The position numbers were made by a program, and so were the translations under genes. From Saccharothrix espanaensis DSM 44229 (GTDB lineage Bacteria > Actinomycetota > Actinomycetes > Mycobacteriales > Pseudonocardiaceae), in NCBI RefSeq assembly GCF_000328705.1, contig NC_019673.1, forward strand, positions 5,270,001 through 5,334,000: a DNA stretch of 64,000 bases. The letters are read 5' to 3'. Shown in pieces: positions 14,488-64,000 of the stretch. Position 1 is the first letter of the stretch, and the number at the start of each line of letters is the position of its first letter. The notes beneath the pieces were generated by a model that saw only the letters and a program-made list of their open reading frames with translations, was not told the origin of the DNA and made no database searches.

Positions 14488-14495
14488 GGCTCTCC

Positions 14496-40175: not shown

Positions 40176-40216
40176 GCCGGCCGGTGCCACGACGAACCGG
40201 CGGCGGGGCGGGGGTG

Positions 40217-41446: not shown

Positions 41447-41913
41447 TCCCCCAGTCGACTACCCGCGTGTCGCCACGATCCGACCACCACACGCGGGCCG
41501 TCGTCCAGGGCTGGAAACGGTCGCTCAACGTCACATCACCACGAATATTCCTATAGCAGAGGGTTTTCTAGTCCTTTGTGGATGGAATGCCGCTGCTGGG
41601 ACGCACGGGCCGGCACCCGGAAGGCACCCGCTGCCGATCTGTGCCGCCAACGGCCCGTTCCAGGTCGGCACGGCGTTGCGCGGTCGGATCTGTCAGGTCG
41701 GTGCCCTCGGGTCACGGGGTGGGGAGGTCGACCGCGCACCGCGGCGCGCTCCCCCATCCTCACCTGGGACCTCTGCCTGGGGGAACCGGTCACGAGGGCG
41801 GTGCCCGGTGAATGAGGGCAGGCACGATCGACCATCCGGTGGAGTACCGCCCCGGGCACTGCCGCTACCGTCTGGTGCGGCCGCCGCCGAGCACTCGTCC
41901 AGAGAGGTTCGTC
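41447..41913. other. Intergenic region with AT-richer island
   Basis: About 465 bp between the oxidase remnant and the DUF4360 gene. An AT-rich patch (41537-41580, CGAATATTCCTATAGCAG and following) stands out from its GC-rich surroundings and may hold a promoter. Open frames here are short, lack family resemblance and overlap each other on opposite strands, so I do not call them genes. Confidence 0.4.
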
Positions 41914-43874: not shown

Positions 43875-45008
43875 TCAGCTCGCCGAGGCGACCGCGCGGC
43901 CCCGGTAGACCTCGAACCGCTCGCGGATCTCCGCGGCCCGGCCCTCCGCCTCGTCCAGCCGCATCGTGCGGCACTCGTAGCCCAGCTCCGCGGTCAGCAC
44001 CGCCATGGACGACGGTTCGAAGTGGGTGGTGCCGTCGGCGTCGATGGCGTCGATGCCGTCGTGCACCTGCCCGCTGAGGTTGACCGCGACGGCCTCCTCC
44101 AGCGACACGCTGTCCGGCAGCGCCGTCCGGATGCGTCCGCCCTCGATCGCGACCGGGTAGCCGCCCACCAGCCCGCCCGGTCCGGGCGCGTGCACCAGGG
44201 CGTCGCGGCGGTCGGCCAGCGGGACCAGCACGCTGAGCGCGGACGCGGCGGTCATCGCCTGGCCCGGCATCCCGCCGGTCCGCCGGTACTCCAGCGGCAG
44301 GCGCTTGAGCAGCGACGCGGTGTCCACCCGGTCGGTGAGGTCCTGCCCGCCGTGGCCGATGGTCAGCGCCATCCCGGCCCGGCCCGGGTCGCCCGCGCGG
44401 GAGAGCCGGTGCGACACGTAGTGGTGGGCCACCAGCCGCACGTCGACCTCGGGCACCGGCACGCCCAGCAGGTCGGCGGCGGCGACGCGGATGCCGGGCA
44501 CGTTGTTGGCCACGTTGCCGATGCCGACGTCCGGCGACAGGCCGACCGAGGTAAGGATCGGGTGCACGGCGTCCGGGTAGGCCGCGTTGACCACGACCGC
44601 GCTCGTGCCGGACCGCCGGACCGCCTGCATCGCCTTGTGCACGGGCACCAGGTGCATCGGCAGCCACGGCCCGTAGTTGGCCGCGCGCAGCCGCTGGAAC
44701 GACTCCCCCGGCAACGTCGTGATCACCCACCAGGACTGGAAGCTCGCCGCCAGGAACAGCACGTCCGGGTCGAACGCCGCGATGCACTCGGCGGTGCGGT
44801 CGATGTCGTTCAGGTCGGTCGTGGCGTGGTCCACCGTCGGGTGGTAGCCGCGTTGCAGCGCGCTGAACCGGCTGAGGTTCGCCGCGCGCAGCGTCGGGTC
44901 CTCCTCCCGGCCGACCAGCCGCACGTGCCGGTCGCCCGGTCCGTGCGCGAGCTCGTGGAACACCCGGCGACCGAGGTCGCCCGCACCCAGCACCATCACC
45001 TTGCTCAT
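43875..45008 (-). CDS. NAD(P)-binding Rossmann protein, unknown function (BGC2)
   Basis: 377 residues from ATG 45008, with GGGGAGAAG upstream, overlapping the HAD stop (ATGA). The N-terminus is a dinucleotide-binding fold (VMVLGAGDLGRRVFHELA). A middle stretch (FLAASFQSWWVITTL; VVNAAYPDAVHPILTS; GIGNVANNVPGIR) somewhat resembles saccharopine-dehydrogenase-like or lactate/GH4-type folds, but I cannot assign a family. It is the last gene of BGC2 and probably performs a redox step on a small substrate. The function is unknown. Confidence 0.65.
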   Translation of the reverse strand: MSKVMVLGAGDLGRRVFHELAHGPGDRHVRLVGREEDPTLRAANLSRFSALQRGYHPTVDHATTDLNDIDRTAECIAAFDPDVLFLAASFQSWWVITTLPGESFQRLRAANYGPWLPMHLVPVHKAMQAVRRSGTSAVVVNAAYPDAVHPILTSVGLSPDVGIGNVANNVPGIRVAAADLLGVPVPEVDVRLVAHHYVSHRLSRAGDPGRAGMALTIGHGGQDLTDRVDTASLLKRLPLEYRRTGGMPGQAMTAASALSVLVPLADRRDALVHAPGPGGLVGGYPVAIEGGRIRTALPDSVSLEEAVAVNLSGQVHDGIDAIDADGTTHFEPSSMAVLTAELGYECRTMRLDEAEGRAAEIRERFEVYRGRAVASAS

Positions 45009-45667
45009 GAGCTTCTCCCCCCGTGCACCAGACCCGGCAGCGCGTGCATGGACGAGAACGTCGGCACGCCCGCCCGGTGCGGCGCTCGCACCGGAACCAC
45101 GTTGAACTGCAACACCTTCATGCCGGCCGCCAGGGCGGCGTCCACCCCGACCAGGCTGTCCTCCACCACCAGGCACCGGTCGGCGGGCACGCCCTGGTCG
45201 CGGGCCGCCCACCGGAACAGCCCGGGGTCGGGCTTCCACGCGCCCGCCTCGTAGGCCGAGTACAGCCGGCCGTCGAAGTGGTCGATGATCCCGCAGTCCG
45301 AGAGCCGCTCCTTGATCAGCTCCAGCGGGCTGTTGGACGCCACGCACATCGGCACGTCGACCCGCGCCAGGGCTTCGCGCACCCCGGGCACCGGCTCCAG
45401 CGTGGAGCCGATCAGCTCGCGGCACTTGGCCCGCACGATCGGCACCGCGTCCGGCGGCGGCGGGCGGTGCGCCAGCCCCTCCAGCAGGTCGATGCACTCC
45501 TGCACCTTCTTGCCGGAGAACAACTCCTGCGCCTCGTGGTGCTCCAGGTGCACGCCCATCAGCGTGCCGAGGTAGGCCAGTGCGCCGTCCTCGGCGTCCT
45601 GGGTGTCGACCAGGACCCCGTCCAGGTCCAGGATCAGGAGGTCCACACCGTGCTCACCGGTAGTCAA
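45005..45667 (-). CDS. HAD-superfamily phosphatase (beta-phosphoglucomutase-like)
   Basis: 220 residues. The HAD nucleophile motif is LILDLDGVLVDTQ (DxDG), motif II is VASNS, the Lys region is AWKPDPGLF, and motif III is VVEDSLVGVDAA. A cap domain lies between. TTG 45667, preceded by GAGGAGG inside the ATP-grasp gene, is the most likely start, giving a 14-bp overlap; a GTG seven codons later is possible. It should hydrolyse a phosphate ester. Together with the ATP-grasp gene it may process an acyl-phosphate or phosphorylated intermediate (inference). Confidence 0.75.
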   Translation of the reverse strand: MTTGEHGVDLLILDLDGVLVDTQDAEDGALAYLGTLMGVHLEHHEAQELFSGKKVQECIDLLEGLAHRPPPPDAVPIVRAKCRELIGSTLEPVPGVREALARVDVPMCVASNSPLELIKERLSDCGIIDHFDGRLYSAYEAGAWKPDPGLFRWAARDQGVPADRCLVVEDSLVGVDAALAAGMKVLQFNVVPVRAPHRAGVPTFSSMHALPGLVHGGRSS

Positions 45668-46853
45668 TCCAGTCCACCTCCTCGATCGCGGCGATCGTCT
45701 CCGCCAGTTGGTCGTGGTCGTCCACGCGGCCCAGCACCGACGCCGCGTGGCTGCGGGTGCCCATCCGCCAGTCGACCGACGCGCCGGGCGCGGTCAGCAC
45801 CGCGATCCGCTCGACGTTCGGGGTGCGCCGCAGCCGGGCGACACCGCGCAGGGAACGCACTTCGGTCGCCCACAGCGGCGGGATGACGACGTAGTGGAAC
45901 GCGATCGGCCCGTCGTAGCGCGGGGCCAGGTCGAAGTCCACGCCGACCGCCGAGCGCACGGCCACCGCCGCCGGGTCCGAGGTGGACGAGCGGATCGCGA
46001 GGTCGTCGACCCACGCGCCGAGCCGCCCGTTGACCTCGATGACCCGGGGCCCGGCCGCGGTGAGCTTGATCTCCACGTCCGCCATGCCCCGCCGGATGCC
46101 CAGCGCCCGCACCGCGCGGCACGCCAGGTCCTCGACCTCGCGGACCTCCTCGGGCGGCACGACGGACCGCCCGCCGTAGCCGCCGCGCTCCCGGAACGGC
46201 TCGGCCAGGGCGAACTTGCTCGTCACGAACACCGGCCGCACCTGCTCGCCGGTCGCCACGCAGTCCACGGCGATGTAGTCCGCCCACGGCCCGTCGGTCG
46301 GCCGACCGACGAGGACTTCCTCCAGCAGCACCGATTCCTCCGTGGCCAGCGCCTCGGCGGCCCACTGCCGGCACTCCTCCAACGTGTGCACGACGGTCGT
46401 GTTGCGGCTGCCCGCGCCCAGCACGGGTTTGATGATCGCGGGCACGCCGACGTGCGCCACGGCCTCGTCCACCTGGTCGACCGAGGTCAGCGTCCGGAAC
46501 CGGATCGCCTCCAGGCCGGCTTGCGCGAACCGGGCGCGCTGCCGGTCCTTGCGGGTGATGGCGTCGATGTCGGCCGCCGCGTGGTAGGGCAGGTCCAGCG
46601 CTTCGGCGAGGGCGACGGTGGGCGCGAGCTGGTGCTCGCTGAACGTCACGATCCCGTCCGGCCGGTGGGCCTTGAGGTCGGTGACCGCGTCGGCGGGCAC
46701 GACCGCGCCGACCAGCTCCAGCGTGGGCCGCATGGCCCGGCCGTGGTCGGAGTCGGCGACCGCGAACACCACCTCGCAGTCGATCTCGGCGGCGGCCTCG
46801 GCGATCCGGGTCGGCGCGAGGCTGCCGGTGTCGTAGACCACGACGAGCTTCAC
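45654..46853 (-). CDS. ATP-grasp ligase (BGC2)
   Basis: 399 residues; GTG 46853 overlaps the stop of the adenylation gene. The central ATP-grasp fold is recognisable: GVPAIIKPVLGAGSRNTTVV is the glycine-rich loop with its Lys, VLLEEVLVGR the hinge, and VEIKLTAAGPRVIEVNGRLGAW the metal-binding Glu/Asn. The N-terminal domain resembles biotin-carboxylase/carnosine-synthase-type ligases. Such enzymes join a carboxylate, via an acyl-phosphate, to an amine. In BGC2 it could form a peptide bond outside the NRPS line or activate an unusual acid (inference). Confidence 0.85.
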   Translation of the reverse strand: MKLVVVYDTGSLAPTRIAEAAAEIDCEVVFAVADSDHGRAMRPTLELVGAVVPADAVTDLKAHRPDGIVTFSEHQLAPTVALAEALDLPYHAAADIDAITRKDRQRARFAQAGLEAIRFRTLTSVDQVDEAVAHVGVPAIIKPVLGAGSRNTTVVHTLEECRQWAAEALATEESVLLEEVLVGRPTDGPWADYIAVDCVATGEQVRPVFVTSKFALAEPFRERGGYGGRSVVPPEEVREVEDLACRAVRALGIRRGMADVEIKLTAAGPRVIEVNGRLGAWVDDLAIRSSTSDPAAVAVRSAVGVDFDLAPRYDGPIAFHYVVIPPLWATEVRSLRGVARLRRTPNVERIAVLTAPGASVDWRMGTRSHAASVLGRVDDHDQLAETIAAIEEVDWIDYR

Positions 46854-48361
46854 CCGAGCACCTCCGCGAGCTTGGTGCGGTCGGTCTTGCCGTTGTCGTT
46901 GAGCGGCAGCGTGTCCAGGTGCCGGACCCGGTCGGGCACCATGTGGGCCGGCACCTGCGCGCGCAGCCACAGGTCGAGGTCGGGGCCGGGCAGCGGGGTG
47001 CCGGTGTACCCGGCCCACAGCCGGGTCTCGCCGGCCTCGGTGACCGCGACGACGCCGGCCGCGACGATGTCGGGGTGCCGGTACAGCGCGGCCTCGACCT
47101 CGCCCAGCTCGACCCGGTGGCCCATGATCTTCACCTGGTGGTCGAGCCGGCCCCGGTGCACCATCTCCGTGCCCTCCCAGCGGATCCGGTCGCCGGTGCG
47201 GTACCAGAGGTCGCGGGTCGGCGGGCTGGTGCCGTCGTGGGGGACGGCGACCGAGCCTTCCTCGTAGCGCACGAACCGGCCGGCGTTCTCCCTCGGGTCC
47301 AGGTAGCCGTCGAACCGCTGCGGCCCGCGCAGGCAGAGTTCGCCGTCCTGGGCCGGCCGGCCGTCCTCGCCGAGCACCACGCCCTCCGACATCGGGTACA
47401 TCCGCCCGATGGGGACGGTCGCGCCGCGCGCCCAGGCGTCCCGGTCGGCGAAGGGCACCTCGTACTCGGTGCAGGTGATGGTCACCTCGGTCGGCCCGTA
47501 CAGGTTGTGGAACCTGCTCCGGGGCGCAACCTCGTGCCACATGTCGGCGTCCTGCACGGTCACCGGTTCCGCGCCGAACAGGCTGTGCCGCAACGTGGTG
47601 GCCTGCCCGCGGGGCAGGTTGCCGACCTGCTCGGCGACCCTGATCACCGACGGCACCGAGAACCAGTGCGTCAACCGGTTGCGCACGATGAAGTCGACCG
47701 GCCGGTAGAGGTCTTCCTTGTCGGGCACCACGAGCGTGGCGCCCGCGCCCCACGTGACGAACATGTCGAACGTCGAGGCGTCGAAGGTCAGGCCGAACAC
47801 CTGGGACAGCCGGGAGTCCTCGTCGACCTCGTAGCGGCCGATGTTGTAGCCGACGTACGGGGCGATGCCGCGCTGGAGGATCGGCACGCCCTTGGGCTGC
47901 CCGGTCGAGCCGGAGGTGAACAGCACGTAGGCTTCCAGCTCCGGATCGGCCGGCACGTCGGGCAGCGCGCCGTCGCCGGTGGCGTCCAACCCGATCACGG
48001 TGGGCCGGAACCTCTTGGGCAGCGCGGCGAACACGTCCGCGCCGGGGTCGACCAGCGCGATCGTCACGCCGGCGCGCTGGGCGATGTCGAGGTTGCGGTC
48101 CCGCGGGTACTCGGGGTTGAGCGGCAGCACGCCCGCGCCGACCCGCTGGATCGCCAGCCACCCCGCGTAGGCGGTGAACTTCTTGGTGGACACCAGGGCG
48201 ATCCGGGTCGGCGTCGGCCCCGGCACCGCCGTGATGGCCTTGGCCAGCGCGAGCGCCCGCTCCTCCAGCTCCGCGTAGGTCCACCGCCGGGACCCGATCT
48301 CCAGCGCGGTCCGGTCGGGGAACTTCCGCGCCGCCGCGTCGAACCACTCGTAGAGCGTCAC
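46850..48361 (-). CDS. Stand-alone adenylation enzyme (A domain)
   Basis: 503 residues; GTG 48361 overlaps the DpgC-like stop. Core motifs are intact: A3 LFTSGSTGQPKG, A5 NLYGPTE, A7 YRTGD, A8 GRLDHQVKIMGHRVELGEVE, A10 Lys in NDNGKTDR. No carrier or condensation domain is attached. My reading of the pocket is D-A-F-F-L-G-L-I-T, resembling codes for branched aliphatic amino acids. I infer it charges a carrier in trans, most likely the C-A-PCP protein two genes upstream whose own A domain is degenerate. The nearby aminotransferase could make its substrate. Confidence 0.88.
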   Translation of the reverse strand: MTLYEWFDAAARKFPDRTALEIGSRRWTYAELEERALALAKAITAVPGPTPTRIALVSTKKFTAYAGWLAIQRVGAGVLPLNPEYPRDRNLDIAQRAGVTIALVDPGADVFAALPKRFRPTVIGLDATGDGALPDVPADPELEAYVLFTSGSTGQPKGVPILQRGIAPYVGYNIGRYEVDEDSRLSQVFGLTFDASTFDMFVTWGAGATLVVPDKEDLYRPVDFIVRNRLTHWFSVPSVIRVAEQVGNLPRGQATTLRHSLFGAEPVTVQDADMWHEVAPRSRFHNLYGPTEVTITCTEYEVPFADRDAWARGATVPIGRMYPMSEGVVLGEDGRPAQDGELCLRGPQRFDGYLDPRENAGRFVRYEEGSVAVPHDGTSPPTRDLWYRTGDRIRWEGTEMVHRGRLDHQVKIMGHRVELGEVEAALYRHPDIVAAGVVAVTEAGETRLWAGYTGTPLPGPDLDLWLRAQVPAHMVPDRVRHLDTLPLNDNGKTDRTKLAEVLG

Positions 48362-49698
48362 CGCTTCCCCCCGGGGTGTCGGCCGACCCAGGTGCGTTCG
48401 AGGTTCGCCACCAGGTCGGGGCTGTGCAGCAGGCGGGCCTGCTCCAAGGCGTACCAGGACATGTACTCGCGGAAGCGGCCTTCCGGCTCCTCGAAGCGGC
48501 GCAGCATCCGCCGGTTGGCCAGTACCGCCGGGTCGGCCAGCGCGTCGGCGGCGGCCGTGGTGCGGGCGGCCAGCTCCCCCGCGTCCACGACCTCGTCGCA
48601 CAGCGCGGCGGCTTCCGGCGTGCCGGCGTCCACCCGCCGGTCGCGGAAGATCATCTGCCGGGCCAGCCGCGGCCCGGACGCGCCGGGCAGCCGCAGGTTC
48701 GCCGCGCCGGGGATGATCCCCTCGCGCAGCGCGGGCAGCGTGAAGTACGCGCCCCGCTCGGCGATCACGTGGTCGAAGACCAGCAGGAGCTGCGCGCCGC
48801 CGCCGATGGCGAACGAGTCCACCACCGCGATCCACGGCTTCTCCACCGGGTCGGTCAGCCAGTCGTCCCGGTCGGTGACCAGGCCGCGGACGATCTTGTT
48901 GATGTAGCCCAGCTCCCGGCTCAGGAAGAAGTCCAGCAGGGAGATCTCGCCCTGGTAGAGCCGGGTGAGGTTGATGCCCGCGCCGAACACCCGGCGGCCC
49001 CGGTAGCGCGGGTGCTCCATCGTGCCGCCGCGCAGCACGCCGACGGCGGTGGCGTCGTCGAGCAGCACCAGGTCGACCGCGATCTCCAGCGCGGCCACGA
49101 CGATGTCGTCCTCCGCGTTGAGGAACGGCAGGTTCTTCAGGTCGATCTCGGACACGCCGGCCACCCGCCGCACGGTGACCACGCCGAGGTCGGCGAACCC
49201 GGTGGAGCGGAAGGCGGGCAGCGCCACCATCGCCTGCGGCGTCGGCCGGCGCATCGCCTCGGTGAGCAGGTCGCCCGCGGTCGCGTCGCGCAGCAGGCCC
49301 CAGAAGAAGATCCCGAGGTCGACCTCGCGGCCCTCCTTGTCCGCCTGGGGCAGCACGCGTTCCCGCTCCTGCTGCGCCTTGGTCGGCACCAGGCCCGGCC
49401 ACAGCTCGGTGGCCTGGTCGACCAGGTCGTGCAGGCGCAGCGGGGCGCGACCGCCGTCGGTCAGCTCGCCGTGCACCCGCTCGGCGTGCTGCTCGATGAA
49501 CCTCCGGCGCACCAGGCGCGCGGCGTTGGTCACGGTGTGCGCGGCGCGCCGCTGCTCCGGGTCGCGCTCCGCCTTGGGCGGCAGCGCGGCCAGTTCGTCC
49601 TCCATCCGGGACAGGAAGGCCGCTGCGGCCGTGCCGTCCCGGTCGAAGCCACGACCGAGCGCGGGCGTGTCGTCGATTAGCACTGTCGGATCCCCCAT
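48358..49698 (-). CDS. DpgC-like cofactor-free dioxygenase (crotonase fold)
   Basis: 446 residues from ATG 49698, the length of DpgC (about 440) rather than of ordinary enoyl-CoA hydratases. An alpha-helical N-terminal half (RRRFIEQHAERVHGELTDG, PGLVPTKAQQ) is followed by a crotonase core: YRGRRVFGAGINLTRLY and FAIGGGAQLLLVFDHVIAE form the oxyanion holes. These match DpgC, which oxidises 3,5-dihydroxyphenylacetyl-CoA with O2 and no cofactor in glycopeptide pathways. No dpgA, dpgB or dpgD is seen here, so its substrate is probably a different thioester. It lies between the two trans-loading partners of BGC2. Confidence 0.82.
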   Translation of the reverse strand: MGDPTVLIDDTPALGRGFDRDGTAAAAFLSRMEDELAALPPKAERDPEQRRAAHTVTNAARLVRRRFIEQHAERVHGELTDGGRAPLRLHDLVDQATELWPGLVPTKAQQERERVLPQADKEGREVDLGIFFWGLLRDATAGDLLTEAMRRPTPQAMVALPAFRSTGFADLGVVTVRRVAGVSEIDLKNLPFLNAEDDIVVAALEIAVDLVLLDDATAVGVLRGGTMEHPRYRGRRVFGAGINLTRLYQGEISLLDFFLSRELGYINKIVRGLVTDRDDWLTDPVEKPWIAVVDSFAIGGGAQLLLVFDHVIAERGAYFTLPALREGIIPGAANLRLPGASGPRLARQMIFRDRRVDAGTPEAAALCDEVVDAGELAARTTAAADALADPAVLANRRMLRRFEEPEGRFREYMSWYALEQARLLHSPDLVANLERTWVGRHPGGKR

Positions 49699-49709
49699 GT
49701 GCTCCGGCG

Positions 49710-52601
49710 TTACCGGTGTTGTCGGGCCTTCCCGCGCGCTCGCAGCGCCTCCTGCCGGGCCCGGCCCCGATCGGCGGCGTCCGGTGCCGACGGCTCGGCC
49801 GTGCCCGCCAGGTGTTCGGCCATGGCGCGCACGGTCGGGTGCCGGAACAGGTCGGTGACGCCGACGTGCCGGTCGAACGCGATCCGCAGCTGCTCGCACA
49901 GCCGCACGAGCAGCAGCGAGTTGCCGCCCGCGTCGAAGAAGTTGTCCCGCACACCGACCGTCCGCCCCAGCACGGAGGTCCACGCCCGCGTGACGGTCTG
50001 CTCGGTGTCGGTGAGCGGGAGTTCTTCGCCCGCCTGGTCCGGTGTCTCGGCCAGCAGCCGCAGGACACCGTCCCGGTCGGGTTTCCCGCCGGGCAGCACG
50101 GGAAGCGTGTCCACCGTCCGCACGTGCGGCGGCACGGTGTAGTGCGGGAGCCGCTCGGCCAGCCACTCCCGCAGGTGCGGGGCCGACATGCCCTGCCGCA
50201 CCACGGCCACGGCCACGGCGCCGTCCTCGCCGTCCTCGCCGTCGAACGCGTGCGCCCGCCGCACGGCCGGGTGCTCCAGCAGCACCGACTCGACCGCCGC
50301 GAGGTCGACCCGGCCGCTGCGCCGCACGACGTGCACGGTGCCGTCGGGGTCGCTGCGGGCGAGGTCGCCGGTGGCGAAGATCCGCTGCTCCGGGTCGAAC
50401 GGGTCCGGGTGGAACCGCTCGTCGGTGGCCGCCGGGTCGTCCAGGTAGCCGCGTGCCAGGCCGTGGCCGCCGATGTGCAGCGCGCCGACGCTGCCGGGCG
50501 GCACCGGCCGCAGCCGCTCGTCGAGCACGTAGGCGCGCACGCCGTCCAGCGGTCGGCCGTCGACCAGCGCCACCGAGGTCTCGGCGGTGGCGTAGAGGTC
50601 CACGAACTCGTGCTGGGGCAACGCTTCGCGCAGCGAGGTCAGCGGTGTCCCGCCGGTCGTGACGATCGTGCGCACCGCGCCCGGCAGCCGCCCGGCCACG
50701 TGTTGCTCGGCTATCACGGCCGGGGTGCCGAACAGCGCCGGACCCGCGCCGAGCGTGCCGCCGGTGGTCAGCGGCGCGAGGACCTCGAACACCGTCGCCG
50801 CCCAGGCGAGCGGGCCGGCCATCGGCCAGGACGAGATGCCCTTCCAGCGCAGGGAGTTCACGAACGCCCGGTGCTCCACCACGACCGCCTGCGGGTCCTG
50901 GCCCGCTGTGGGCAGCACGAACGCGGCGTTGTCCGGCGTCACCGCCGAGGTCACCGGCCGGGCGGGCCAGACGTCCAGCCGCAGCACCGGGACCGACGAG
51001 GTGGCGAGCACCGGCTCGGTCCGCTCGTCGGCCAGCACGACCGCGAGCTCGTACTGCTCGGCCATGGCCCGCACCAGGTACGCGGGCAGCGCGGGGTCCA
51101 GCGGGACGCACACGCCGCCGGCCTTCAGCACGCCCAGCACGGCGGCCGGCACCATCGCGGACTTCCCCGCGCACACCCCGACCCGGACCTCCGGGCCCAC
51201 GCCGAACTCGGCCAGCCGCGCGGCGACACCGGTGGCGACGTCGTCCAGCTCGCGGTAGGTCCACCGCCGGTCGGCGTCCACGGCGACGGCGTCGGGCCGC
51301 TCGGCGACCCGGTCGGCGAACAGCTCGTGCACGCACCGCCGCACGGGCGGCGACAGCGCGGCCCGCTGGTCGACACCGGCCGACCGGAGTTCGGAGACCC
51401 GCAGGTCGGGGTTCTCCCCCACCTGCCGCAGCACGACCTCCAGCCGTTCCAGCATCGAGTCCACAAGGGACCCGTCGAACAGGTCGACCCGGTAGTCGGC
51501 CACGACCTCCACGCCCCGCGCGGTCTCGGTGAGCCCGAAGGTCAGCTCGACCTTCTGGCTCTCCAACCGCATGTCCCGCCGGGTGAAGGTGACCTCGCCG
51601 ACGGCGCGCGGCGCGGGTTGCACGGTGTGGGTGAACATCACCTGGAACACCGGGTGGTAGCTGGGATCGCGGGTGACGGCGAGCGCGGCGAGCACGTCCT
51701 CCAGCGGCAGGTCCGGGTGGTCGTGCGCGTCGAGGACGTCGTTGCGGACCCGTTGCACCACCTCGGCGAACGTCGGGTCGTCGCGCAGATCGGTGCGCAG
51801 CACCACCGGCTTGACCAGGTACCCGATGAGCCCGGCGTGCGCGGTGCTGTCGCGCCCGGACAACGCCATGCCCATCAGCACGTCGTCGTTGCCGTAGTGG
51901 GCCAGCACGACGTCACAGGCGGCTTTGAGCGCCATGTACGAGGTCGCCCGGCCCCGGCGGGCCACCTGGCGGACGCGGTCGACCACGTCGGCCGGGATCA
52001 GCCGCGCGCGGCGCTCCCCCCGGTGGTCGGTGGTCATCGGCCGGGGGCCGACCATCGGCAGGTCGATCACCGGCGGCGCGCCGGCGAGCCGGGTGATCCA
52101 GTACTCGCGGTCGTCGCCGGCCTCGGGCAGGTCGCCGAACCGCACGGGCAGGTCGGGCAGGTCGCCGCCGCCGTACAGGGTGACCAGCTCGGCCAGGAAG
52201 ACGTCGAGCGACAGGCCGTCGATGACGATGTGGTGCACGTTGACCACGAGCCGGTGCCGGTCGGGCCCCAGGCGCAGCAGCAGGACCCGGAACGGCGGCG
52301 CGGCGGCCAGGTCGAACGGCTGCTGCCCGAACCGGTGGCCGTCCTCCTCGGTACCGTCCACAACGGACAGTTCGACCGGGGTGGCGGGCTCGACGACGTG
52401 CAGCCCGTCGACCACGCGGGAGCGCAGCGGCTCGTGCCGCCGCACGATCCCGGTCAGGCAACGGCCGAGCAGGTCCACGTCCAGCGGGCCGTCGACGTCC
52501 ACCGCGAACGGGTGGTTGAAGAACGGGTCGCCGGGACGGATCCGGGACAGCGTCCACAGCCGGCGCGCGGCCGGGGACAGGGGGAACCGGTCTGCGCTCA
52601 C
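49710..52601 (-). CDS. NRPS module C-A(degenerate)-PCP
   Basis: 963 residues; GTG 52601 overlaps the MFS stop. The C domain is normal with VHHIVIDGLS (about residue 121). The A domain has lost its signatures: A3 TSGSTG-x-PKG reads PTAGQDPQAV, A5 YGPTE reads YATAET, and A8 keeps only a trace (RRSGRVDLAAVE). The terminal PCP is intact with DAGGNSLLL (Ser about 892). It cannot plausibly adenylate an amino acid itself. I infer that the stand-alone A enzyme encoded two genes downstream loads this PCP. The A relic presumably keeps the module's architecture. Confidence 0.88.
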   Translation of the reverse strand: MSADRFPLSPAARRLWTLSRIRPGDPFFNHPFAVDVDGPLDVDLLGRCLTGIVRRHEPLRSRVVDGLHVVEPATPVELSVVDGTEEDGHRFGQQPFDLAAAPPFRVLLLRLGPDRHRLVVNVHHIVIDGLSLDVFLAELVTLYGGGDLPDLPVRFGDLPEAGDDREYWITRLAGAPPVIDLPMVGPRPMTTDHRGERRARLIPADVVDRVRQVARRGRATSYMALKAACDVVLAHYGNDDVLMGMALSGRDSTAHAGLIGYLVKPVVLRTDLRDDPTFAEVVQRVRNDVLDAHDHPDLPLEDVLAALAVTRDPSYHPVFQVMFTHTVQPAPRAVGEVTFTRRDMRLESQKVELTFGLTETARGVEVVADYRVDLFDGSLVDSMLERLEVVLRQVGENPDLRVSELRSAGVDQRAALSPPVRRCVHELFADRVAERPDAVAVDADRRWTYRELDDVATGVAARLAEFGVGPEVRVGVCAGKSAMVPAAVLGVLKAGGVCVPLDPALPAYLVRAMAEQYELAVVLADERTEPVLATSSVPVLRLDVWPARPVTSAVTPDNAAFVLPTAGQDPQAVVVEHRAFVNSLRWKGISSWPMAGPLAWAATVFEVLAPLTTGGTLGAGPALFGTPAVIAEQHVAGRLPGAVRTIVTTGGTPLTSLREALPQHEFVDLYATAETSVALVDGRPLDGVRAYVLDERLRPVPPGSVGALHIGGHGLARGYLDDPAATDERFHPDPFDPEQRIFATGDLARSDPDGTVHVVRRSGRVDLAAVESVLLEHPAVRRAHAFDGEDGEDGAVAVAVVRQGMSAPHLREWLAERLPHYTVPPHVRTVDTLPVLPGGKPDRDGVLRLLAETPDQAGEELPLTDTEQTVTRAWTSVLGRTVGVRDNFFDAGGNSLLLVRLCEQLRIAFDRHVGVTDLFRHPTVRAMAEHLAGTAEPSAPDAADRGRARQEALRARGKARQHR

Positions 52602-53813: not shown

Positions 53814-53821
<8 letters not shown>
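52598..53821 (-). CDS. MFS transporter, probable product exporter (BGC2)
   Basis: 407 residues from ATG 53821, overlapping the NRPS stop by 8 bases. Twelve hydrophobic helices are visible, with the motif-A loop between TM2 and TM3 (GPLTDRLPKRVLLVG) and its echo in the second half (GPMMVRRYPVRGLLL). The sequence resembles the MFS_3 / macrolide and enterobactin exporter groups. Position inside the operon points to export of, and self-protection against, the BGC2 product. Confidence 0.88.
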
Positions 53822-57763
<3,942 letters not shown>

Positions 57764-57767
<4 letters not shown>

Positions 57768-58951
57768 GTCCGGGCTCCTTGGTAGCGGTCCTTGAGTTCG
57801 GTCAGGTGGCGCAACCCGTCGAGCACGGCGGCCGGTTCCAGGCCGAAGTCGACCAGGCACGCCGCCTCGTCCACGCCGAGGTCCACCAGGTCCTCGACCA
57901 GCGACTCGCCCTTGTCCGGGGTGCCCAGCAGCGCGAGGCTCTCGAAGTAGCGGTCGAAGGTGGCGGCCAGCATCGCCTCGCGGCCGGCGTCGTCCAGCTG
58001 GTTGTACTGGCTGTCGAAGTTGCCCTGCTGCGCCAGGAACGTGCGCAGGTAGGCGATCAGCGGGCCGCGGACCTGCTCGCGCACCACGTCCTCGTCCGCG
58101 CCCAGGAACGTGTGCACCATCGCGGTGACCCGGCCGTCGGCGTGCCCGGCCTCCTTGAGCGCCTCGCGGTAGGCGGTGATCTTGTCCCGCAGGTCGGCGG
58201 GCCGCTGCGCGACCAGGCCGGTCAGCACGTTCGCGCCGATCTCGCCGGCCCGGACGAACGTGTCGACGCTGCCCTGCGAGGAGATCCACAGCGGCAGCCG
58301 GGCCTGGCGCGGGCGGGGCAGGGTGCGCACCGGCACGCCGTCGACGTCGACGGTCTCCCCGGCCCACAGCCGCTGGACGGTCTCGATGGCCGCGAACATG
58401 TCGTCCTTGCGGCTCGCGTAGCGCTCGCGCCCGCCGGGTGCGATCACGAAGTCGTTGGGGTGCCAGCCGGAGGCGCAGGCGATCGCCACCCGGCCGTCGG
58501 ACAGGTTGTCCACCACCGACCACTCCTCGGCGATGCGCACCGGGTGGTGCAGCGGCACGGCGACGCTGCCGGCGCGGATCTGGATCCGCTCGGTGCGCAC
58601 CGCGATGGCGGCGGCCAGCACCGACGGGTTCGGGTACAGGCCGCCGAAGTCCACGAAGTGCCGTTCGGGCACCCAGATCCCGGAGAAGCCGTTGCGGTCG
58701 GCGTACTCGGCGCTGTCGAGCAGCAGCCGGTAGTTGTTCGGCCCCTGCGCCGAGCCGTCGCCGGAGAAGAAGAACAGGCTGAACTCCATGGTGCTGGAGC
58801 CGCGCCGGGTGCGCCGGGGCGCGGTGGCGGCGGGCTTCGCGGTCGGCGCCGCCACGTCCCGGTCCCGCATCGCCTGTTCCAGCGCGGCGCGCTGGGCCGG
58901 GCTCAGCGACGACATCCGCTCCCGCAAGTGCCGGAGGCGATCGTCAGACAT
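57764..58951 (-). CDS. LLM flavin-dependent monooxygenase, MupA/Atu3671-like
   Basis: 395 residues from ATG 58951, overlapping the PKS stop by 8 bases. The bacterial-luciferase fold starts MEFSLFFFSGDG, with GIWVPERHF, IRAGSVAVPLHHPVRIAEEW and ASGWHPNDF, all typical of the MupA/Atu3671 group that works with PKS/NRPS lines. The first 30 residues are extra and contain LSPAQRAALEQAM, almost the same docking-like helix as at the start of the next NRPS. It probably oxidises the carrier-bound chain using FMNH2 and O2; the flavin reductase must come from elsewhere. Confidence 0.88.
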
Positions 58952-61900
58952 CGGAGTCTCCGTTCAGGCGGGCCGCGACCTCGTCCGGCGAGAGGTTCTC
59001 GATCTCGCGCAGCAGCGCGTCGAACTCGTCCAGCCCGATCGCCTCCGCCTGGTGCGACCGGATCGCCGACGCCAGCCCGGTGACCGTGGGCGCTTCGAAG
59101 ATCGCGCTCATCGGCAGGTCGCCGTGCACCTGGCGGAGCCGGGAGACGATCTGGATGGCGAACAGCGAGTTGCCGCCCAGCTCGTAGAAGTCGTCGTCCG
59201 GGTCGATCCGGGCCACGCCCAGGGTCTCCCGCCAGATCGTGGCCACGCCGCGCGCCACCTCGTCGTCCGGCCACACCTGCGCCGGGTCCCAGTCGGCGTC
59301 CGCGTCGGTGTCGCCGCTGACCGCCGCCACGAACGCGGACGCGGTCAGCTCGTCCCTCTGCGCCAACGAGTCGCTGAAGTCCACAGTGGACACGATGAGC
59401 CGGTTCAGGCCGGCCGCCAGCGCGGCGCGGGCCAGCACCACCCCCTCGGTGGCGGTGATGCCCTCGGCCAGGCGCTGCCGGCGGAACCGCTCCCGCACCT
59501 CGGGCAGGTCGGCCATCTGCCGCTCCAGCCAGTCGTCCCAGGACCACTGCGCCCAGTCGACCACCACCCGGTTGCGGGCCGGCGCGTAGGCGTCCAGGAA
59601 CGCCGCCGACGCGCAGTTCTCCACCTGGCCGAAGCCGCCCAGCACGCCCGTGGTGGACGAGCACAGCAGCACGAACTCCACGTCCGGCAGCGCCTCGTCG
59701 ATCTCCAGCACCGCCGCGACGTGCGCGCTGAGCACCTGTTCGGCCTGCTCGCGGGTCTTGAGCGCGATCAGGCCCGCGCCCCGCACGTCGGCCGCGTGCA
59801 CGACACCGCGGATGTCGTGGCGGCGGGCCAGGTCGGCGATCCGGCCGGGCTCGGCGGTGACGACCTTCGCGCCCGACCGCGTCATGTCCTCGGCGAACGC
59901 GCGGCCGAGCTCGCCGTCCACGCCGGTCACCAGGTAGGTGGCGCCCTTCTGCCACGCCCGCGCGTCGGGCAGCGCGACCGGCGCGTAGGAGCGCGCCCAG
60001 CGCTGGTCGCCGCGCAGCGCCACCTGCTCCTCGCGCTGCGGCGCGGACAGCTCGGCCAGCAGCTGGTCCACCAGCCGCCACAGGTCTTCACCGCTGCGGG
60101 GCAGCGTCACGTCCACGCTGTGGCACGTCACGTTGCCGTACTCCTGCGCCAGGACCGTCGCCGCGCCCAGCACGGTCGCGCGTTCCGGCATGAGCACCGG
60201 GCCGACGTCCTGGAGGTCGTTGGTCAGCACGTCGATCCGCACCGGGTCCGGCCCGAGGCCGCGCGCGAGGTCCAACAGGCCGTGGAAGCCGTCGTCCTGG
60301 CTGGTGCGGTACCGGGTGGCGGCGTCGGCCCCGCTCTCGGCCCGGATGCTCCGGGCGTGCACCACCCGGTCCGGCCGGAGGTCCGGCAGGTCGCCGCCGG
60401 GCGGGACGAGCGTGACCTCGCCGGGCAGTTCGGCGGCGAGCGCCTCGGCCACGCCCAGCCCGTCGGCCAGCACCAGCCACTTGGCGGGTGCGAGCTTGCC
60501 GCGCGCGGCCCGTGACGGCAGCCAGACCGGGGCCGACGCCCACCGCGACGGCTCCCGCCGCGGCGAGGCCACCACCGGGGTCACCAGGTGTTCACGCCGC
60601 TGGAACGGGTAGGTCGGCAGCGGCACCCGCGACCGGCGCTCGTCGCCGTGCAGCGCGGCCCAGTCGACCTCGCCGCCGTGCTCCCAGACCGTGGCCAGCG
60701 CCTCCAGCACCGTGCGGCCTTCCGGCTCGCCACGGCGCAGGGTCACCGCCGTGGCGGGGCGGGCCGGGTTGGCCCGGGACAGTCCGCTGAGGACGCTGCC
60801 CGGCCCGACCTCGACCAGCACGGCCGCGCCACGGGCCAGCACGGCGTCCAGCCCGTCGGCGAACCGCACCGGCCGGCGGGTGTGGGTGACCCAGTACTCC
60901 GGGTCCACGGCCTGCTCGTCGGTGATCCACGTGCCGGTCACGTTCGACGCGAACGGCAGCCGGGGCTTGGCCAGGACCGCCGCGCGCAGCGCCCGGCCCA
61001 GCTCGGGCAGCGCGGGGTCGACCATGGCGGTGTGGAAGGCGTGCGAGGTCGGCACGTCCTTGACGATCAACCCCTTGGCTTCCAACAGCTCCCGGGCGTC
61101 GGCGACGGCGTTCTCGGGGCCCGCGACCACGCACCCGCCGGGCGCGTTGACCGCGGCGACGGTGACCGGTCCGGCCAGGCCCGCGAGCGCGGCGGTCGCG
61201 GCGGCCTCGTCCAGCGGGACGGCCAGCATCCGGCCGGGCGGCAGGTCCTGCATCAGCGCCGCCCTGGTCGCCACCACGCGCAGCGCGTCGGGCAGCTCGA
61301 ACACCCCGGCCAGGCAGGCGGCGACCAGCTCACCGAGGCTGTGCCCGATCATCGCGCCCGGCCGCACGCCCCACGACTCCAGCAGCTTGGCCACCGCGTA
61401 GTCGACGCTGAACACGGTGGGCTGGGTGCGCAGCGTGGACCGCAGGTCGGCACCGCGGAACGCCACCTCGCGCACGTCCCAGCCCAGGTGCGGGCGCAGC
61501 AGCTCGGCGCACTCGTCCAAGGCGTCGCGGAACACCGGCTCGGCGCGGTAGAGCTGCTCGCCCATGCCGGTGTACTGGCTGCCCTGGCCGGGCAGCAGGA
61601 ACACCACGGACGGCTCGCCGGCCTCCGTCCGGTGTGGACTCCCCAGCGCCTCGACGGCGCTCTCCGCGCTGTCGGCCACCACGGCGCGGCGGTGCGCGAA
61701 CGCCGCCCGCCCCACTTGCAGGGTGTACGCGGCGTCGGCCAGGTCCACCGCCGGCAGGTGCCCGGCCAGCCGCCGCGACGCCTCGTCCAACGCCGTCGCG
61801 GTGCGCGCGGACAGCGGCAGCACGTGCAGGCCCCGACGGGTCGGCTCGGTGCGCCTGGCCGGCGCGGCCTGCACGACCACGTGGGCGTTCGTGCCGCCGA

Positions 61901-63128
61901 TGCCGAACGAGCTGACGCCGGCCCGCCTCGGGTGCGCGGCCTCGGGCCACGGCACCGGTTCGGCGGTGACCCGGAACGGCAGCGCGTCCAGCTCCGGGTT
62001 GGGCCGGCGGAAGTGCGCGGTGGGCGGGATGACCCCGTTCTCCAGCGCCAGCGCGACCTTGATCAGGCCGGTGACGCCGGCGGCGGCGTCCAGGTGGCCG
62101 ACGTTGCCCTTCACCGACCCGAGCACCCCGGGTTCGGCCCGCGTCCCGAACACCTCGGCCAGCGCACGGGCCTCGATCGGGTCGCCCAGCGGGGTCGCGG
62201 TGCCGTGCGCCTCGACGTACTGCACGGTGTCGCGGTCCACGCCCGCCACGGCCAGCGCCTCGTCCAGGACGGCGACCTGCCCGGTCGTGGACGGCGCGGT
62301 GAAGCCGATCTTGTCCGAGCCGTCGTTGTTGACCGCCGAGCCCAGGATGACCGCGTGCACGTGGTCGCCGTCGCGCACCGCGTCGGCCAGCCGCTTGAGC
62401 ACCACGACCGCCACGCCGTCGCCGGAGGCGGTGCCGGTGGCGTCGGCGTCGAACGGCCGGCAGTGGCCGTCGGTGGAGTGGATGCCGCCCTCCTCGTGGA
62501 GGTGGCCGCGCGGCCCGAGCAGCCGGACCGCCGCGCCGCCCGCGACCGCGAGGTCGCACTCCAGGGTGAGCAGGCTCTGGCACGCCAGGTGCACCGCGAC
62601 CAGCGACGACGAGCACGCCGTCTGCACGGTCAGGCTCGGCCCGGACAGGTTGAGCTTGTAGGACACCCGCAGCGCGGCCATGCCCGGGTCGTTGCCGATC
62701 CGGACCTGCATCGGGTGGGCGAACCCGTTGTCCGCCAGGCGTTCGGTGAGGTACGTGCTCTGCGATACGCCCGCGAACACGCCGGTCCGCCCGGTCGGCA
62801 CGGGGTGCCCGGCGCGTTCCAGGGCCTCCCAGGAGCACTCCAGCAGCAGCCGCTGCTGGGGGTCGGTGACCTCCGCCTCGCTCCGGGTCAGGCCGAAGAA
62901 CTCGGCGTCGAACAGCCCGAAGTCCGCGAGGGTGTGCGCGCTGCGCGTGTAGGACGGGTCGTCCACGAGTTCGCGCGGGACGCCCGCGGCGAGCAGTTCG
63001 TCGGCGGTGTAGTGGCTCAGGCCCTCCTCACCGGCCACCAGCATCGACCAGAACCGGTCGAGGTCCGGCGCGCCGGGGAAGCGCCCGCTCATCCCGACGA
63101 TGGCGACGCCGTCGAGTTCGTCGTTCAT
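58944..63128 (-). CDS. Type I PKS: KS-AT-KR(inactive)-ACP
   Basis: 1394 residues; ATG 63128 overlaps the NRPS stop (ATGA). KS has TACSSS (about 169), EAHGTATPLGDP and KGNVGHLD. AT has GHSLGE (about 594) and HAFH, the malonyl-CoA type. The KR keeps the nucleotide loop VTGVDGELGRAF, but its active site reads GQVENCASAAFLDA: the catalytic Tyr is Asn and the following Asn is Ala, so ketoreduction is not expected. ACP Ser is in GGNSLF (about 1318), followed by a tail EIENLSPDEVAARL typical of docking. One malonate is added and the beta-keto group probably stays. Confidence 0.92.
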   Translation of the reverse strand: MNDELDGVAIVGMSGRFPGAPDLDRFWSMLVAGEEGLSHYTADELLAAGVPRELVDDPSYTRSAHTLADFGLFDAEFFGLTRSEAEVTDPQQRLLLECSWEALERAGHPVPTGRTGVFAGVSQSTYLTERLADNGFAHPMQVRIGNDPGMAALRVSYKLNLSGPSLTVQTACSSSLVAVHLACQSLLTLECDLAVAGGAAVRLLGPRGHLHEEGGIHSTDGHCRPFDADATGTASGDGVAVVVLKRLADAVRDGDHVHAVILGSAVNNDGSDKIGFTAPSTTGQVAVLDEALAVAGVDRDTVQYVEAHGTATPLGDPIEARALAEVFGTRAEPGVLGSVKGNVGHLDAAAGVTGLIKVALALENGVIPPTAHFRRPNPELDALPFRVTAEPVPWPEAAHPRRAGVSSFGIGGTNAHVVVQAAPARRTEPTRRGLHVLPLSARTATALDEASRRLAGHLPAVDLADAAYTLQVGRAAFAHRRAVVADSAESAVEALGSPHRTEAGEPSVVFLLPGQGSQYTGMGEQLYRAEPVFRDALDECAELLRPHLGWDVREVAFRGADLRSTLRTQPTVFSVDYAVAKLLESWGVRPGAMIGHSLGELVAACLAGVFELPDALRVVATRAALMQDLPPGRMLAVPLDEAAATAALAGLAGPVTVAAVNAPGGCVVAGPENAVADARELLEAKGLIVKDVPTSHAFHTAMVDPALPELGRALRAAVLAKPRLPFASNVTGTWITDEQAVDPEYWVTHTRRPVRFADGLDAVLARGAAVLVEVGPGSVLSGLSRANPARPATAVTLRRGEPEGRTVLEALATVWEHGGEVDWAALHGDERRSRVPLPTYPFQRREHLVTPVVASPRREPSRWASAPVWLPSRAARGKLAPAKWLVLADGLGVAEALAAELPGEVTLVPPGGDLPDLRPDRVVHARSIRAESGADAATRYRTSQDDGFHGLLDLARGLGPDPVRIDVLTNDLQDVGPVLMPERATVLGAATVLAQEYGNVTCHSVDVTLPRSGEDLWRLVDQLLAELSAPQREEQVALRGDQRWARSYAPVALPDARAWQKGATYLVTGVDGELGRAFAEDMTRSGAKVVTAEPGRIADLARRHDIRGVVHAADVRGAGLIALKTREQAEQVLSAHVAAVLEIDEALPDVEFVLLCSSTTGVLGGFGQVENCASAAFLDAYAPARNRVVVDWAQWSWDDWLERQMADLPEVRERFRRQRLAEGITATEGVVLARAALAAGLNRLIVSTVDFSDSLAQRDELTASAFVAAVSGDTDADADWDPAQVWPDDEVARGVATIWRETLGVARIDPDDDFYELGGNSLFAIQIVSRLRQVHGDLPMSAIFEAPTVTGLASAIRSHQAEAIGLDEFDALLREIENLSPDEVAARLNGDSDV

Positions 63129-64000
63129 GACCTGCGCTCCAAAGCCTTGGCGCACGAGCGGATCGTGGTCTCGTCCATCAGCAGCCGCAGCGACGCGGCC
63201 ACCCCGAGCCGCTCGCGCATGGTCGCGGCGACCTGGGTGGCCAGCAGCGACTGCCCGCCCAGGTCGAAGAAGTCGTCGTCCAGCCCGATGTCGTCCACCC
63301 ACAGGGCTTCCGCCCAGATCTCGGCGATCGCCTTCTCCAGCGGGGTGCTCGGCGCGGCGAACGGCTCGGCCAGGTCGGGGCGCACCCCGTCGGGTTCGGG
63401 CAGGGCGGCGCGGTCGACCTTCCCGTTGGCGGTCAGCGGGAAGGCGTCGAGTTCCACGAACACCGCCGGCACCATGTACTCGGGCAGCGTCCGCCGCAGG
63501 TGCTCGCGCAGGTCGGGCGCGGGCTCGCCGAGCAGGTAGGCCACCAGCCGCCGGTCGCCGGACTGGTCGGGCAGCGCGGTGACCACGGCGTCCTTGACCC
63601 CGTCGTGCGCGCGCAGCGCGGCCTCGACCTCGCCCAGCTCGATCCGGTGGCCGCGGATCTTCACCTGGTGGTCCAGCCGCCCGGTGTACTGGAGGTCATC
63701 CCCCACCGCGCGGGCGGTGTCGCCGGAGCGGTAGACGCGCCGGCCGGGCCGGTCCGGGTCGGGCAGGTAGCGCTGCGCGGTGAGCCCGGGACGACCCAGG
63801 TAGCCGCGCGTCACGCCGGTGCCGCCGACGTGGATCTCGTGCTCGACCAGCGTGATCGACTGGGTGGGCAGCGCACCGCCGATCATGCTGCCGGGCGCGG
63901 TGCCCAGGTCCTGCGCGGTGACCACCCGGAAGGTGGAGTGCACGGTCGTCTCGGTGATGCCGTACATGTTGACCAGCAACGGTTTGCGGTCGCCGTGCCG
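63125..64000 (-). CDS. NRPS A-PCP, C-terminal part (cut by window edge)
   Basis: The last 291 residues of an NRPS whose start is beyond the right edge. Visible: the A5 region NMYGITETTVHSTF, A7 YRSGD, A8 GRLDHQVKIRGHRIELGEVE, A10 Lys in TANGKVDR, then a PCP with DLGGQSLLA. Its stop overlaps the PKS start, so it hands its aminoacyl (or acyl) group to the PKS. It is likely the loading or an early module. Only part of the pocket (M, V, H at the last three code positions) is readable, so substrate is not called. Confidence 0.88.
   Translation of the reverse strand, partial: RHGDRKPLLVNMYGITETTVHSTFRVVTAQDLGTAPGSMIGGALPTQSITLVEHEIHVGGTGVTRGYLGRPGLTAQRYLPDPDRPGRRVYRSGDTARAVGDDLQYTGRLDHQVKIRGHRIELGEVEAALRAHDGVKDAVVTALPDQSGDRRLVAYLLGEPAPDLREHLRRTLPEYMVPAVFVELDAFPLTANGKVDRAALPEPDGVRPDLAEPFAAPSTPLEKAIAEIWAEALWVDDIGLDDDFFDLGGQSLLATQVAATMRERLGVAASLRLLMDETTIRSCAKALERRS

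What the first reader, a model, noticed from the sequence alone, without database searches (positions are those of the whole stretch)
43875..64000. BGC2: an unfamiliar hybrid operon combining Cys-TE, dead-A module, DpgC-like dioxygenase, LLM monooxygenase and ATP-grasp
Eleven genes read leftwards, nearly all joined by 4-14 bp overlaps, so this is one translationally coupled unit. Each enzyme family is known, but I do not recognise the set: A-PCP, KS-AT-KR°-ACP, MupA-type LLM, C-A(Gly)-PCP-TE(Cys), C-A°-PCP, DpgC-like, free A, ATP-grasp, HAD, Rossmann. Together they suggest an aminoacyl-malonyl-glycyl chain with carrier-bound oxidation and release through a strained or cyclised product.
Basis: partly seen in the sequence, partly recalled or inferred. 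Interest (0 to 1): 0.85.

Follow-up and report, generated by a model that had tools for sequence, protein, structure and literature searches.

The report
Unstudied Saccharothrix NRPS–PKS gene cluster
A soil bacterium, Saccharothrix, carries a compact twelve-gene assembly line for an unknown small molecule; one of its enzymes resembles an antibiotic-pathway dioxygenase but lacks that enzyme's usual partners, and probably makes a rare building block such as phenylglycine rather than acting on the growing chain.

Summary
The run continues past the window to an MbtH gene (65013-65204): 12 genes. The same 12, in order, lie in two more Saccharothrix genomes with different flanks, so the borders are exact. 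The genome length equals that of S. espanaensis DSM 44229, so the locus is probably among its 26 published clusters; I found no product for it.

A-PCP, KS-AT-KR°-ACP, a PuwE-like monooxygenase and C-A(Gly)-PCP-TE fit a Thr-like residue + malonate (α-hydroxylated) + Gly chain. Two points change. The free A is closest to the amide-forming enzymes VinM/IdnL7. The DpgC-like enzyme has no DpgA anywhere in the genome; NRPS-linked relatives of the same kind sit beside pyruvate-dehydrogenase-like genes, a branched-chain aminotransferase, or A domains with a histidine-less arylglycine-like code. I propose that it makes an arylglyoxylate/arylglycine (probably phenylglycine) for the free A and the dead-A module, and does not oxidise the chain. 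The Cys-TE does not by itself imply a strained ring. No chemistry was tested.

The parts
63125..64000 (-). A-PCP loading module, part in the window (gene runs to 64828; an MbtH-like gene at 65013-65204 lies upstream, outside the window). Code DVWNVAMVHK, Thr-like.
58944..63128 (-). PKS KS-AT-KR(inactive)-ACP, malonyl-type AT motif
   Evidence: Pfam; motifs in 3 species
57764..58951 (-). MupA/Atu3671-family luciferase-like monooxygenase (LLM); its N-terminal helix resembles that of the next NRPS (by eye)
   Evidence: TIGR04020 425 bits; PuwE 6ket 324 bits
53814..57767 (-). NRPS C-A-PCP-TE; A code DILQVGVIWK (Gly-like); TE active site GWCYGG
52598..53821 (-).
   Evidence: PF07690/PF05977
49710..52601 (-). 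C-A(dead)-PCP; condensation HHxxxDG and PCP serine intact
48358..49698 (-). DpgC-like cofactor-free dioxygenase; no DpgA in the genome
46850..48361 (-). free-standing adenylation enzyme; closest solved relatives VinM (8k4r) and IdnL7 (6akd); code DAFFLGLITK
45654..46853 (-). ATP-grasp ligase of the amino-acid-ligase type
45005..45667 (-). HAD-family phosphatase
   Evidence: PF00702 68 bits
42760..43842 (+). second branched-chain aminotransferase copy, convergent with and 32 bp from the cluster end; a possible but unproven partner, absent beside the cluster in the other two species

Best explanation
A dedicated 12-gene NRPS-PKS cluster for one small metabolite. Inferred flow: A1 loads a Thr-like residue on its PCP; KS-AT adds malonate and the dead KR leaves a β-ketone; the LLM, docked like the following module, puts a hydroxyl on the α carbon; C-A-PCP-TE adds Gly and the Cys-TE releases the chain, possibly with cyclisation. 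In parallel the DpgC-like enzyme turns an arylacetyl-CoA (most likely phenylacetyl-CoA from phenylpyruvate) plus O2 into an arylglyoxylate, which an aminotransferase makes into an arylglycine (phenylglycine). The VinM-like free A activates it and puts it on the PCP of the C-A°-PCP module in trans, or directly on a carrier-bound amine. ATP-grasp, HAD and the LDH-fold enzyme tailor a precursor or the released product; MFS exports it. Shown: gene set, order, borders, conservation, dead and live motifs, folds, family membership, absence of DpgA, the context association. Inferred: every substrate and reaction.
For: No DpgA: no type III PKS over cut-off in this genome (21.8 bits against 27), and a DpgA query finds nothing in it. 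In a scan of GTDB species genomes, 48 of 55 DpgC loci carry DpgA in the DNA fetched, 7 do not; G531 and G802 add two. Of the 9 genomes with an NRPS-linked DpgC-like gene without DpgA beside it, 8 have no protein over 37% identical to DpgA anywhere; the same query finds 62-100% in G209 and L094's genome. These 9 enzymes lie on one side of a 94/91 branch (92/88 for 8 of them). In L090 and L091 DpgC is followed by PDH-type E1α, E1β and E2, in L091 and G531 by a branched-chain aminotransferase nearby; 0 of 48 DpgA-linked loci match either. This mirrors phenylpyruvate to phenylacetyl-CoA to phenylglyoxylate to Phg (PMC7089894, passages). A-domain code D..L.G...K occurs in 6 of 6 such loci outside this cluster (6 of 13 A domains) against 1 of 23 DpgA-linked loci with a scored A domain (1 of 35); p 1e-5 by locus, 8e-4 by domain. 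G802 was found after the pattern was set and fitted. Free A: VinM and IdnL7 are its nearest solved single-domain relatives. This genome has a second BCAT beside the cluster where 5 other Saccharothrix have one each. LLM: PuwE, whose cluster is proposed to make 3-amino-2-hydroxy acyl chains (PMC4219810, passages).
Against: The cluster has no E1/E2 genes, and the two sister species have no aminotransferase beside it, so arylacetyl-CoA and the amination would come from elsewhere. None of its A domains has the D..L.G...K code; the free A (DAFFLGLITK) is also close to Ile/Val-type codes (recalled). The branch is not pure: L021 (G209), whose DpgA and DpgB lie 15 kb away in the same cluster, falls beside this cluster and L090 (87/93, long branch), and none of its four scored A domains has the code. 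L094 has DpgA and yet the code. L126 lacks DpgA in its genome but falls outside the branch. G531's genome has a 66% DpgA beside its other DpgC. Three residues recalled as contacts of the dihydroxyphenyl ring are kept in 35 of 35 DpgCs, which fits a phenol as well. L091 and L093 are near relatives and DpgA-linked loci include near-copies, so the p values overstate. VinM-type enzymes make amides directly, which would leave the C-A°-PCP module unexplained.
Confidence: 0.42

Rival explanations
1. One reading: the DpgC-like enzyme oxidises a thioester on the assembly line (β-ketoacyl or glycyl), giving an α-keto acid and releasing the chain.
For: It sits inside a translationally coupled NRPS operon with no CoA-substrate supply genes; β-keto thioesters are acidic enough (established chemistry); at 12 positions the three enzymes of this cluster depart together from what at least 85% of 32 other DpgCs have, among them R339G and R423L, which might loosen CoA binding.
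Against: DpgA-less relatives co-occur with E1/E2 or aminotransferase genes that point to a CoA substrate and an amino-acid product; the cluster already has a TE for release.
Confidence: 0.2
2. The DpgC product stays an α-keto acid or is reduced to an α-hydroxy acid (mandelate-like) by the LDH-fold enzyme, and is not transaminated.
For: The LDH/MDH fold is clear and the gene is in all three clusters, while the aminotransferase is beside only one.
Against: Relatives of the LDH-fold protein occur with HAD but without DpgC in the G386 and G065 stretches read, so it may serve another precursor; by eye its catalytic Asp is Asn; the free A keeps the Asp that binds an α-amino group.
Confidence: 0.2
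3. Ordinary 3,5-dihydroxyphenylglycine supply, with DpgA elsewhere in the genome.
For: 496 bits to the DpgC model and the conserved Glu/Arg/Gln.
Against: No type III PKS over cut-off in this genome or G389; a DpgA query finds nothing in either and only a 29% match in G404; score under the DpgC equivalog cut-off.
Confidence: 0.05
4. The cluster is decaying and makes nothing.
For: Dead A and KR domains.
Against: Intact in three species with dN/dS 0.22-0.40; the dead domains are dead in all three.
Confidence: 0.05

Closest known systems
DpgC (3,5-dihydroxyphenylacetyl-CoA 1,2-dioxygenase; 2np9)
   Same: Whole-length similarity (383 bits); Glu/Arg/Gln kept
   Different: No DpgA/B/D beside it, no DpgA in the genome; below the equivalog cut-off
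Phenylglycine (pgl) pathway of pristinamycin
   Same: In relatives L090/L091: PDH-like E1, an arylacetyl-CoA oxidising step, an aminotransferase
   Different: DpgC-like enzyme would replace PglA plus the thioesterase PglD; this cluster itself lacks E1
VinM / IdnL7 amide-forming adenylation enzymes
   Same: Nearest solved single-domain relatives of the free A
   Different: Two of three conserved pocket residues differ (Cys to Ala, Ala to Gly); no macrolactam PKS
PuwE monooxygenase of puwainaphycin synthesis
   Same: Same LLM family, placed between a PKS module and an NRPS module
   Different: Separate protein here, no aminotransferase domain
Gly termination module C-A-T-TE of 4zxh (ABBFA_003403)
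   Same: Gly module with a GWCxGG thioesterase (Gly substrate from a table in PMC11253843)
   Different: No PKS/LLM/DpgC partners known to me
Second cluster of the same genome at 3.828-3.845 Mb
   Same: ATP-grasp 39%, KS-AT 43%, free A 49%, LLM 50%, an MFS gene
   Different: Carries FkbH-type hydroxymalonyl genes (by eye); no DpgC-like match in the stretch read

Membership tests
DpgC (DPA-CoA dioxygenase) | Sequence over the curated equivalog cut-off | tested here: not met
   496 bits, cut-off 530
DpgC (DPA-CoA dioxygenase) | Conserved Glu, Arg, Gln recalled as aryl contacts | tested here: met
   35 of 35 sequences; the role of the residues is recalled
DpgC (DPA-CoA dioxygenase) | DpgA/DpgB/DpgD partners | tested here: not met
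   absent beside it; no DpgA in the genome
DpgC (DPA-CoA dioxygenase) | Conversion of DPA-CoA | not testable with these tools
   needs enzyme assay
pgl phenylglycine pathway | PDH-like E1 in the operon | tested here: not met
   not in this cluster; present in relatives L090 and L091
pgl phenylglycine pathway | Dedicated aminotransferase | tested here: inconclusive
   BCAT copy beside the cluster in this genome only
VinM/IdnL7 enzymes | Nearest by sequence among solved A enzymes | tested here: met
   core region: 228.5 and 225.6 bits in one stretch; 8xjz 230.3 and LgrA 202 are sums over two A domains, best single 118 and 106
VinM/IdnL7 enzymes | Conserved Cys, Ala, Thr of the small-amino-acid pocket | tested here: not met
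   Ala, Gly, Thr here (residues named in PMC11253843)
VinM/IdnL7 enzymes | Amide formation on a carrier-bound amine | not testable with these tools
   needs assay
MupA/Atu3671 LLM | TIGR04020 over cut-off | tested here: met
   425.2 against 244.45 bits
Ring-forming Cys-thioesterases (obafluorin, sulfazecin type; recalled) | Cys nucleophile | tested here: met
   GWCYGG in 3 of 3 species
Ring-forming Cys-thioesterases (obafluorin, sulfazecin type; recalled) | Closest relatives are ring formers | tested here: inconclusive
   best solved match 4zxh, a Gly module whose product chemistry I did not look up; NocB fourth row
Lactate/malate dehydrogenase superfamily | Fold | tested here: met
Lactate/malate dehydrogenase superfamily | Catalytic His with Asp and substrate Arg | tested here: inconclusive
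   a His is nearly invariant (H196); Asp appears as Asn by eye

The most novel reading that the evidence does not exclude
NRPS-linked DpgC-like enzymes without DpgA are a functional subfamily of actinobacteria that opens a shorter route to phenylglycine: one cofactor-free enzyme turns phenylacetyl-CoA and O2 into phenylglyoxylate, doing the work of PglA and PglD. In this Saccharothrix cluster the product feeds a split module (VinM-like A plus dead-A C-PCP) of a Thr-hydroxymalonyl-Gly peptide not described before.
Probability: 0.35. Interest if true: 0.68.

Novelty: new variant of a known kind. Interest (0 to 1): 0.5.

Why it matters
Phenylglycine is a rare building block of streptogramin antibiotics and of industrial interest (PMC7089894). 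DpgC-like enzymes cut loose from dihydroxyphenylglycine synthesis would be a mining handle for new peptides, an alternative one-enzyme oxidation step for phenylglycine production, and a test of what sets DpgC's substrate range. The cluster itself is a small, precisely bounded target for heterologous expression.

Tried and rejected
Foxicin paper (PMC5318452, outline and passages): S. espanaensis is only a test strain there; rejected. Ordinary Dpg supply: disfavoured. My first hand-read code for the free A (DAFFSFLITK, note) was misaligned; the IdnL7 alignment gives DAFFLGLITK. BCAT as a cluster gene: left open. Phenylacetyl-CoA ligase TIGR02155: no match over cut-off in the three genomes, best 413 against 646 bits in this one; says little. 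E1α relatives of L090: 61% copy in this genome at 6.77 Mb, 62% in G389, best 38% in G404; whether this is a general 2-oxo acid dehydrogenase was not tested. L126 lacks DpgA but also NRPS genes in the DNA read and falls outside the branch; not in the code count. L021 and L068 looked DpgA-less in 1.5-kb flanks; wider DNA showed DpgA in both, so a 10-kb flank can miss a DpgA: the genome-wide search is the sounder test. Xanthomonas paper (PMC3849588, passages): its DpgC lies in a full Dpg set. Literature: open-licence PMC only; no paper on this cluster or on a DpgC route to phenylglycine in those listings. Supplements of PMC3469384, where the cluster would be numbered, could not be read.

Rows dropped: one search left out L140, L137 (long branches) and 11 near-copies; one search used 29 rows. 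In the A-code counts, A stretches under 330 or 300 residues were skipped, and three of the six orphan loci were read over 36-40 kb, the DpgA-linked ones over about 22 kb or less.
Full report
What is there. The window is 5270001-5334000 of a single-contig genome of 9,360,653 bp, the published length of Saccharothrix espanaensis DSM 44229 (PMC3469384, passages and section 9). The identification is by length alone. That paper counts 26 clusters, six of them NRPS/PKS hybrids; its numbering supplement could not be read, so I cannot say which number this locus bears. Eleven minus-strand genes fill 43875-64000. Beyond the window the A-PCP gene ends at 64828 and an MbtH-like gene follows at 65013-65204. 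Eight or nine of ten junctions overlap by 4-14 bp, depending on the HAD start; one has an 11-bp gap.

Borders. Of 25 genomes of the genus, 3 hold the DpgC-like gene (this one and two at 88%); a fourth, G401, has a 49% relative. G389 (Saccharothrix sp. ALI-22-I, L088) and G404 (S. luteola NEAU-S10, L089) hold all 12 genes in the same order at 67-91% identity, with different genes on both sides. So the unit is MbtH to the LDH-fold gene, and it moves as a block. dN/dS between this genome and G389 is 0.22-0.40 for 11 genes (MbtH not measured).

Domain states. In all three species the A domain of C-A°-PCP lacks the A3 motif, the Asp that binds the amino group and (by eye) most of A8; the KR lacks its Tyr; the C domain HHxxxDG, the KS triad and all carrier serines are intact; the TE reads GWCYGG. 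The dead A (75-76% identity) and KR (78-79%) diverge more than the live A, KS and AT domains of the other enzymes (86-88%); the C domain beside the dead A is 81-83%. A-domain codes: DVWNVAMVHK (A1; shares seven of ten positions with the recalled Thr code DFWNIGMVHK), DILQVGVIWK (recalled Gly pattern DILQLGLIWK), free A DAFFLGLITK, in G389 DAFFVGVITK.

LLM. It belongs to TIGR04020 (425 bits, cut-off 244) and its closest solved protein is PuwE (324 bits). In the puwainaphycin cluster the monooxygenase domain between a PKS and an NRPS module is proposed to give 3-amino-2-hydroxy acyl chains (PMC4219810, passages). G386 has KS-AT, LLM and C-A in one polypeptide, in the order of the separate genes here. 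The LLM and the next NRPS start with similar helices (by eye), so the LLM may dock to the same ACP. I infer α-hydroxylation of the β-ketoacyl-ACP.

Free A. Its nearest solved single-domain relatives are VinM and IdnL7 (names from PMC13311259 and PMC11253843, passages). VinM is called amide-forming in the title that PMC13311259 cites; that it aminoacylates a carrier-bound amine is recalled. Two of their three pocket residues differ (Cys to Ala, Ala to Gly), which should enlarge the pocket. At E 1e-100 or better, homologues (47-54% identical) occur in 9 of the 393 other class genomes sampled, and this genome holds a second one. In 3 of the 10 such loci read with 1.5-kb flanks (L152, L158, and L160 of this genome) an MFS gene and then an LLM-like sequence follow.

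The DpgC-like gene. It aligns over its length with DpgC (383 bits) and keeps the Glu/Arg/Gln trio in 35 of 35 sequences compared. A scan of one genome per GTDB species found 55 DpgC loci; in 48 a DpgA match lies in the DNA fetched (up to 10 kb each side, less where contigs end), in 7 none: L088, L089, L090 (Actinoplanes), L091 (S. albidochromogenes), L093 (Streptomyces WAC06614), L100 (Nocardiopsis terrae) and L126 (S. adustus). G531 adds one. In Pseudonocardiaceae 61 of 390 genomes have a DpgC match; of 27 newly fetched loci 26 have DpgA and one, G802, has not. Genome-wide, a DpgA query finds nothing over 37% identity in this genome, G389, G404, G802 and the genomes of L090, L091, L093, L100 and L126; G531's genome has a 66% match beside its other DpgC; the query finds 62-100% in G209 and L094's genome. 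So eight NRPS-linked DpgC-like genes live in genomes without DpgA.

Tree. In one search this cluster's enzymes, L090, L091, L093, L100, G802 and L074 (G531) lie on one side of a 94/91 branch and the DpgA-linked enzymes with L126 on the other; one search gives 92/88 without G802, with L094 next outside. When L021 (G209) is added it falls beside this cluster and L090 (87/93) on a long branch, although DpgA and DpgB lie 15 kb away in its cluster. So the branch is enriched for DpgA-less enzymes but not pure, and long branches (L074, L100, L021) make details unsure.

What the DpgA-less loci have in common. L090 and L091 continue with E1α, E1β and E2 of pyruvate-dehydrogenase type (only L091's E1α is over its cut-off), and L091 with a branched-chain aminotransferase over its cut-off. 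By tblastn over 58 contexts (57 distinct loci), E1α/E1β occur only in L090 and L091, this type of aminotransferase only in L091 and G531; none of the 48 DpgA-linked loci has either (the HpgT-type aminotransferases seen in Dpg loci are another family, recalled). The phenylglycine route of pristinamycin runs phenylpyruvate, phenylacetyl-CoA, benzoylformyl-CoA, phenylglyoxylate, Phg with PglA-E (PMC7089894, passages). A DpgC-type enzyme, which oxidises and cleaves in one step, would do the middle two. Code D..L.G...K was found in 6 of 6 NRPS-linked DpgA-less loci outside the Saccharothrix cluster (6 of 13 A domains) and in 1 of 23 DpgA-linked loci with a scored A domain (1 of 35 A domains; L094); L021's cluster and G659 add 0 of 6 A domains. 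Fisher p is 1e-5 by locus and 8e-4 by domain; relatedness among loci makes both too small. The pattern was set after the first five loci; G802 came later and fits. The Hpg pocket uses a His for the para-hydroxyl (PMC11253843, passage); mapping it to the position that is Leu here rests on the recalled Hpg code.

Back to this cluster. It has no E1/E2, and its only A domain of roughly this shape is the free A. This genome carries a second BCAT, convergent and 32 bp from the cluster end, where five other Saccharothrix, among them the two other carriers, have one BCAT each. The simplest account is that the DpgC-like enzyme supplies an arylglycine or arylglyoxylate, the free A activates it, and the PCP of the dead-A module carries it.

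Novelty. Each enzyme family is known; the set was not found in any listing I could search. I rate it a new variant of a known kind. The wider point, DpgC-like genes in genomes without DpgA, tied to phenylglycine-like codes, is the part a specialist may find surprising.

Noticed in passing
window 13255-32205: A separate, probably unrelated cluster: glycosyltransferase-like, DegT-type aminotransferase, two P450s and a 2304-aa NRPS with codes DVWHFSLVDK and DVQNTEQVAK (labels by eye).
   Followed up: no
window 40217-41431: Three short minus-strand pieces that read like one flavin amine oxidase in different frames (by eye); a broken gene or an assembly error.
   Followed up: no
L161-L162 (this genome, 3.828-3.845 Mb): Second cluster sharing ATP-grasp, KS-AT, free A, MFS and LLM with this one, plus FkbH-type hydroxymalonyl genes (some labels by eye).
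   Followed up: partly
L046-L047 (G386) and L052-L054 (G065): The LDH-fold protein recurs with HAD, a sulfotransferase-like protein, an SDR, a methyltransferase and an MFS gene (labels by eye): a small conserved cassette of unknown role.
   Followed up: no
L090 9980-14587 and L091 9935-15956: Run of genes DpgC-like, E1α, E1β, E2 (and BCAT in L091): the best place to test a DpgC route to phenylglycine.
   Followed up: yes
L200-L201 (G209): A DpgC-like gene next to an aminotransferase, with DpgA and DpgB 15 kb away in one large NRPS cluster: the Dpg cassette split in two.
   Followed up: partly
L078-L080 (G404) stretch 38263-41874; window 17056-20697: Large protein beside the cluster in S. luteola is 40% identical over 1200 residues to one at window 17056-20697.
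   Followed up: no
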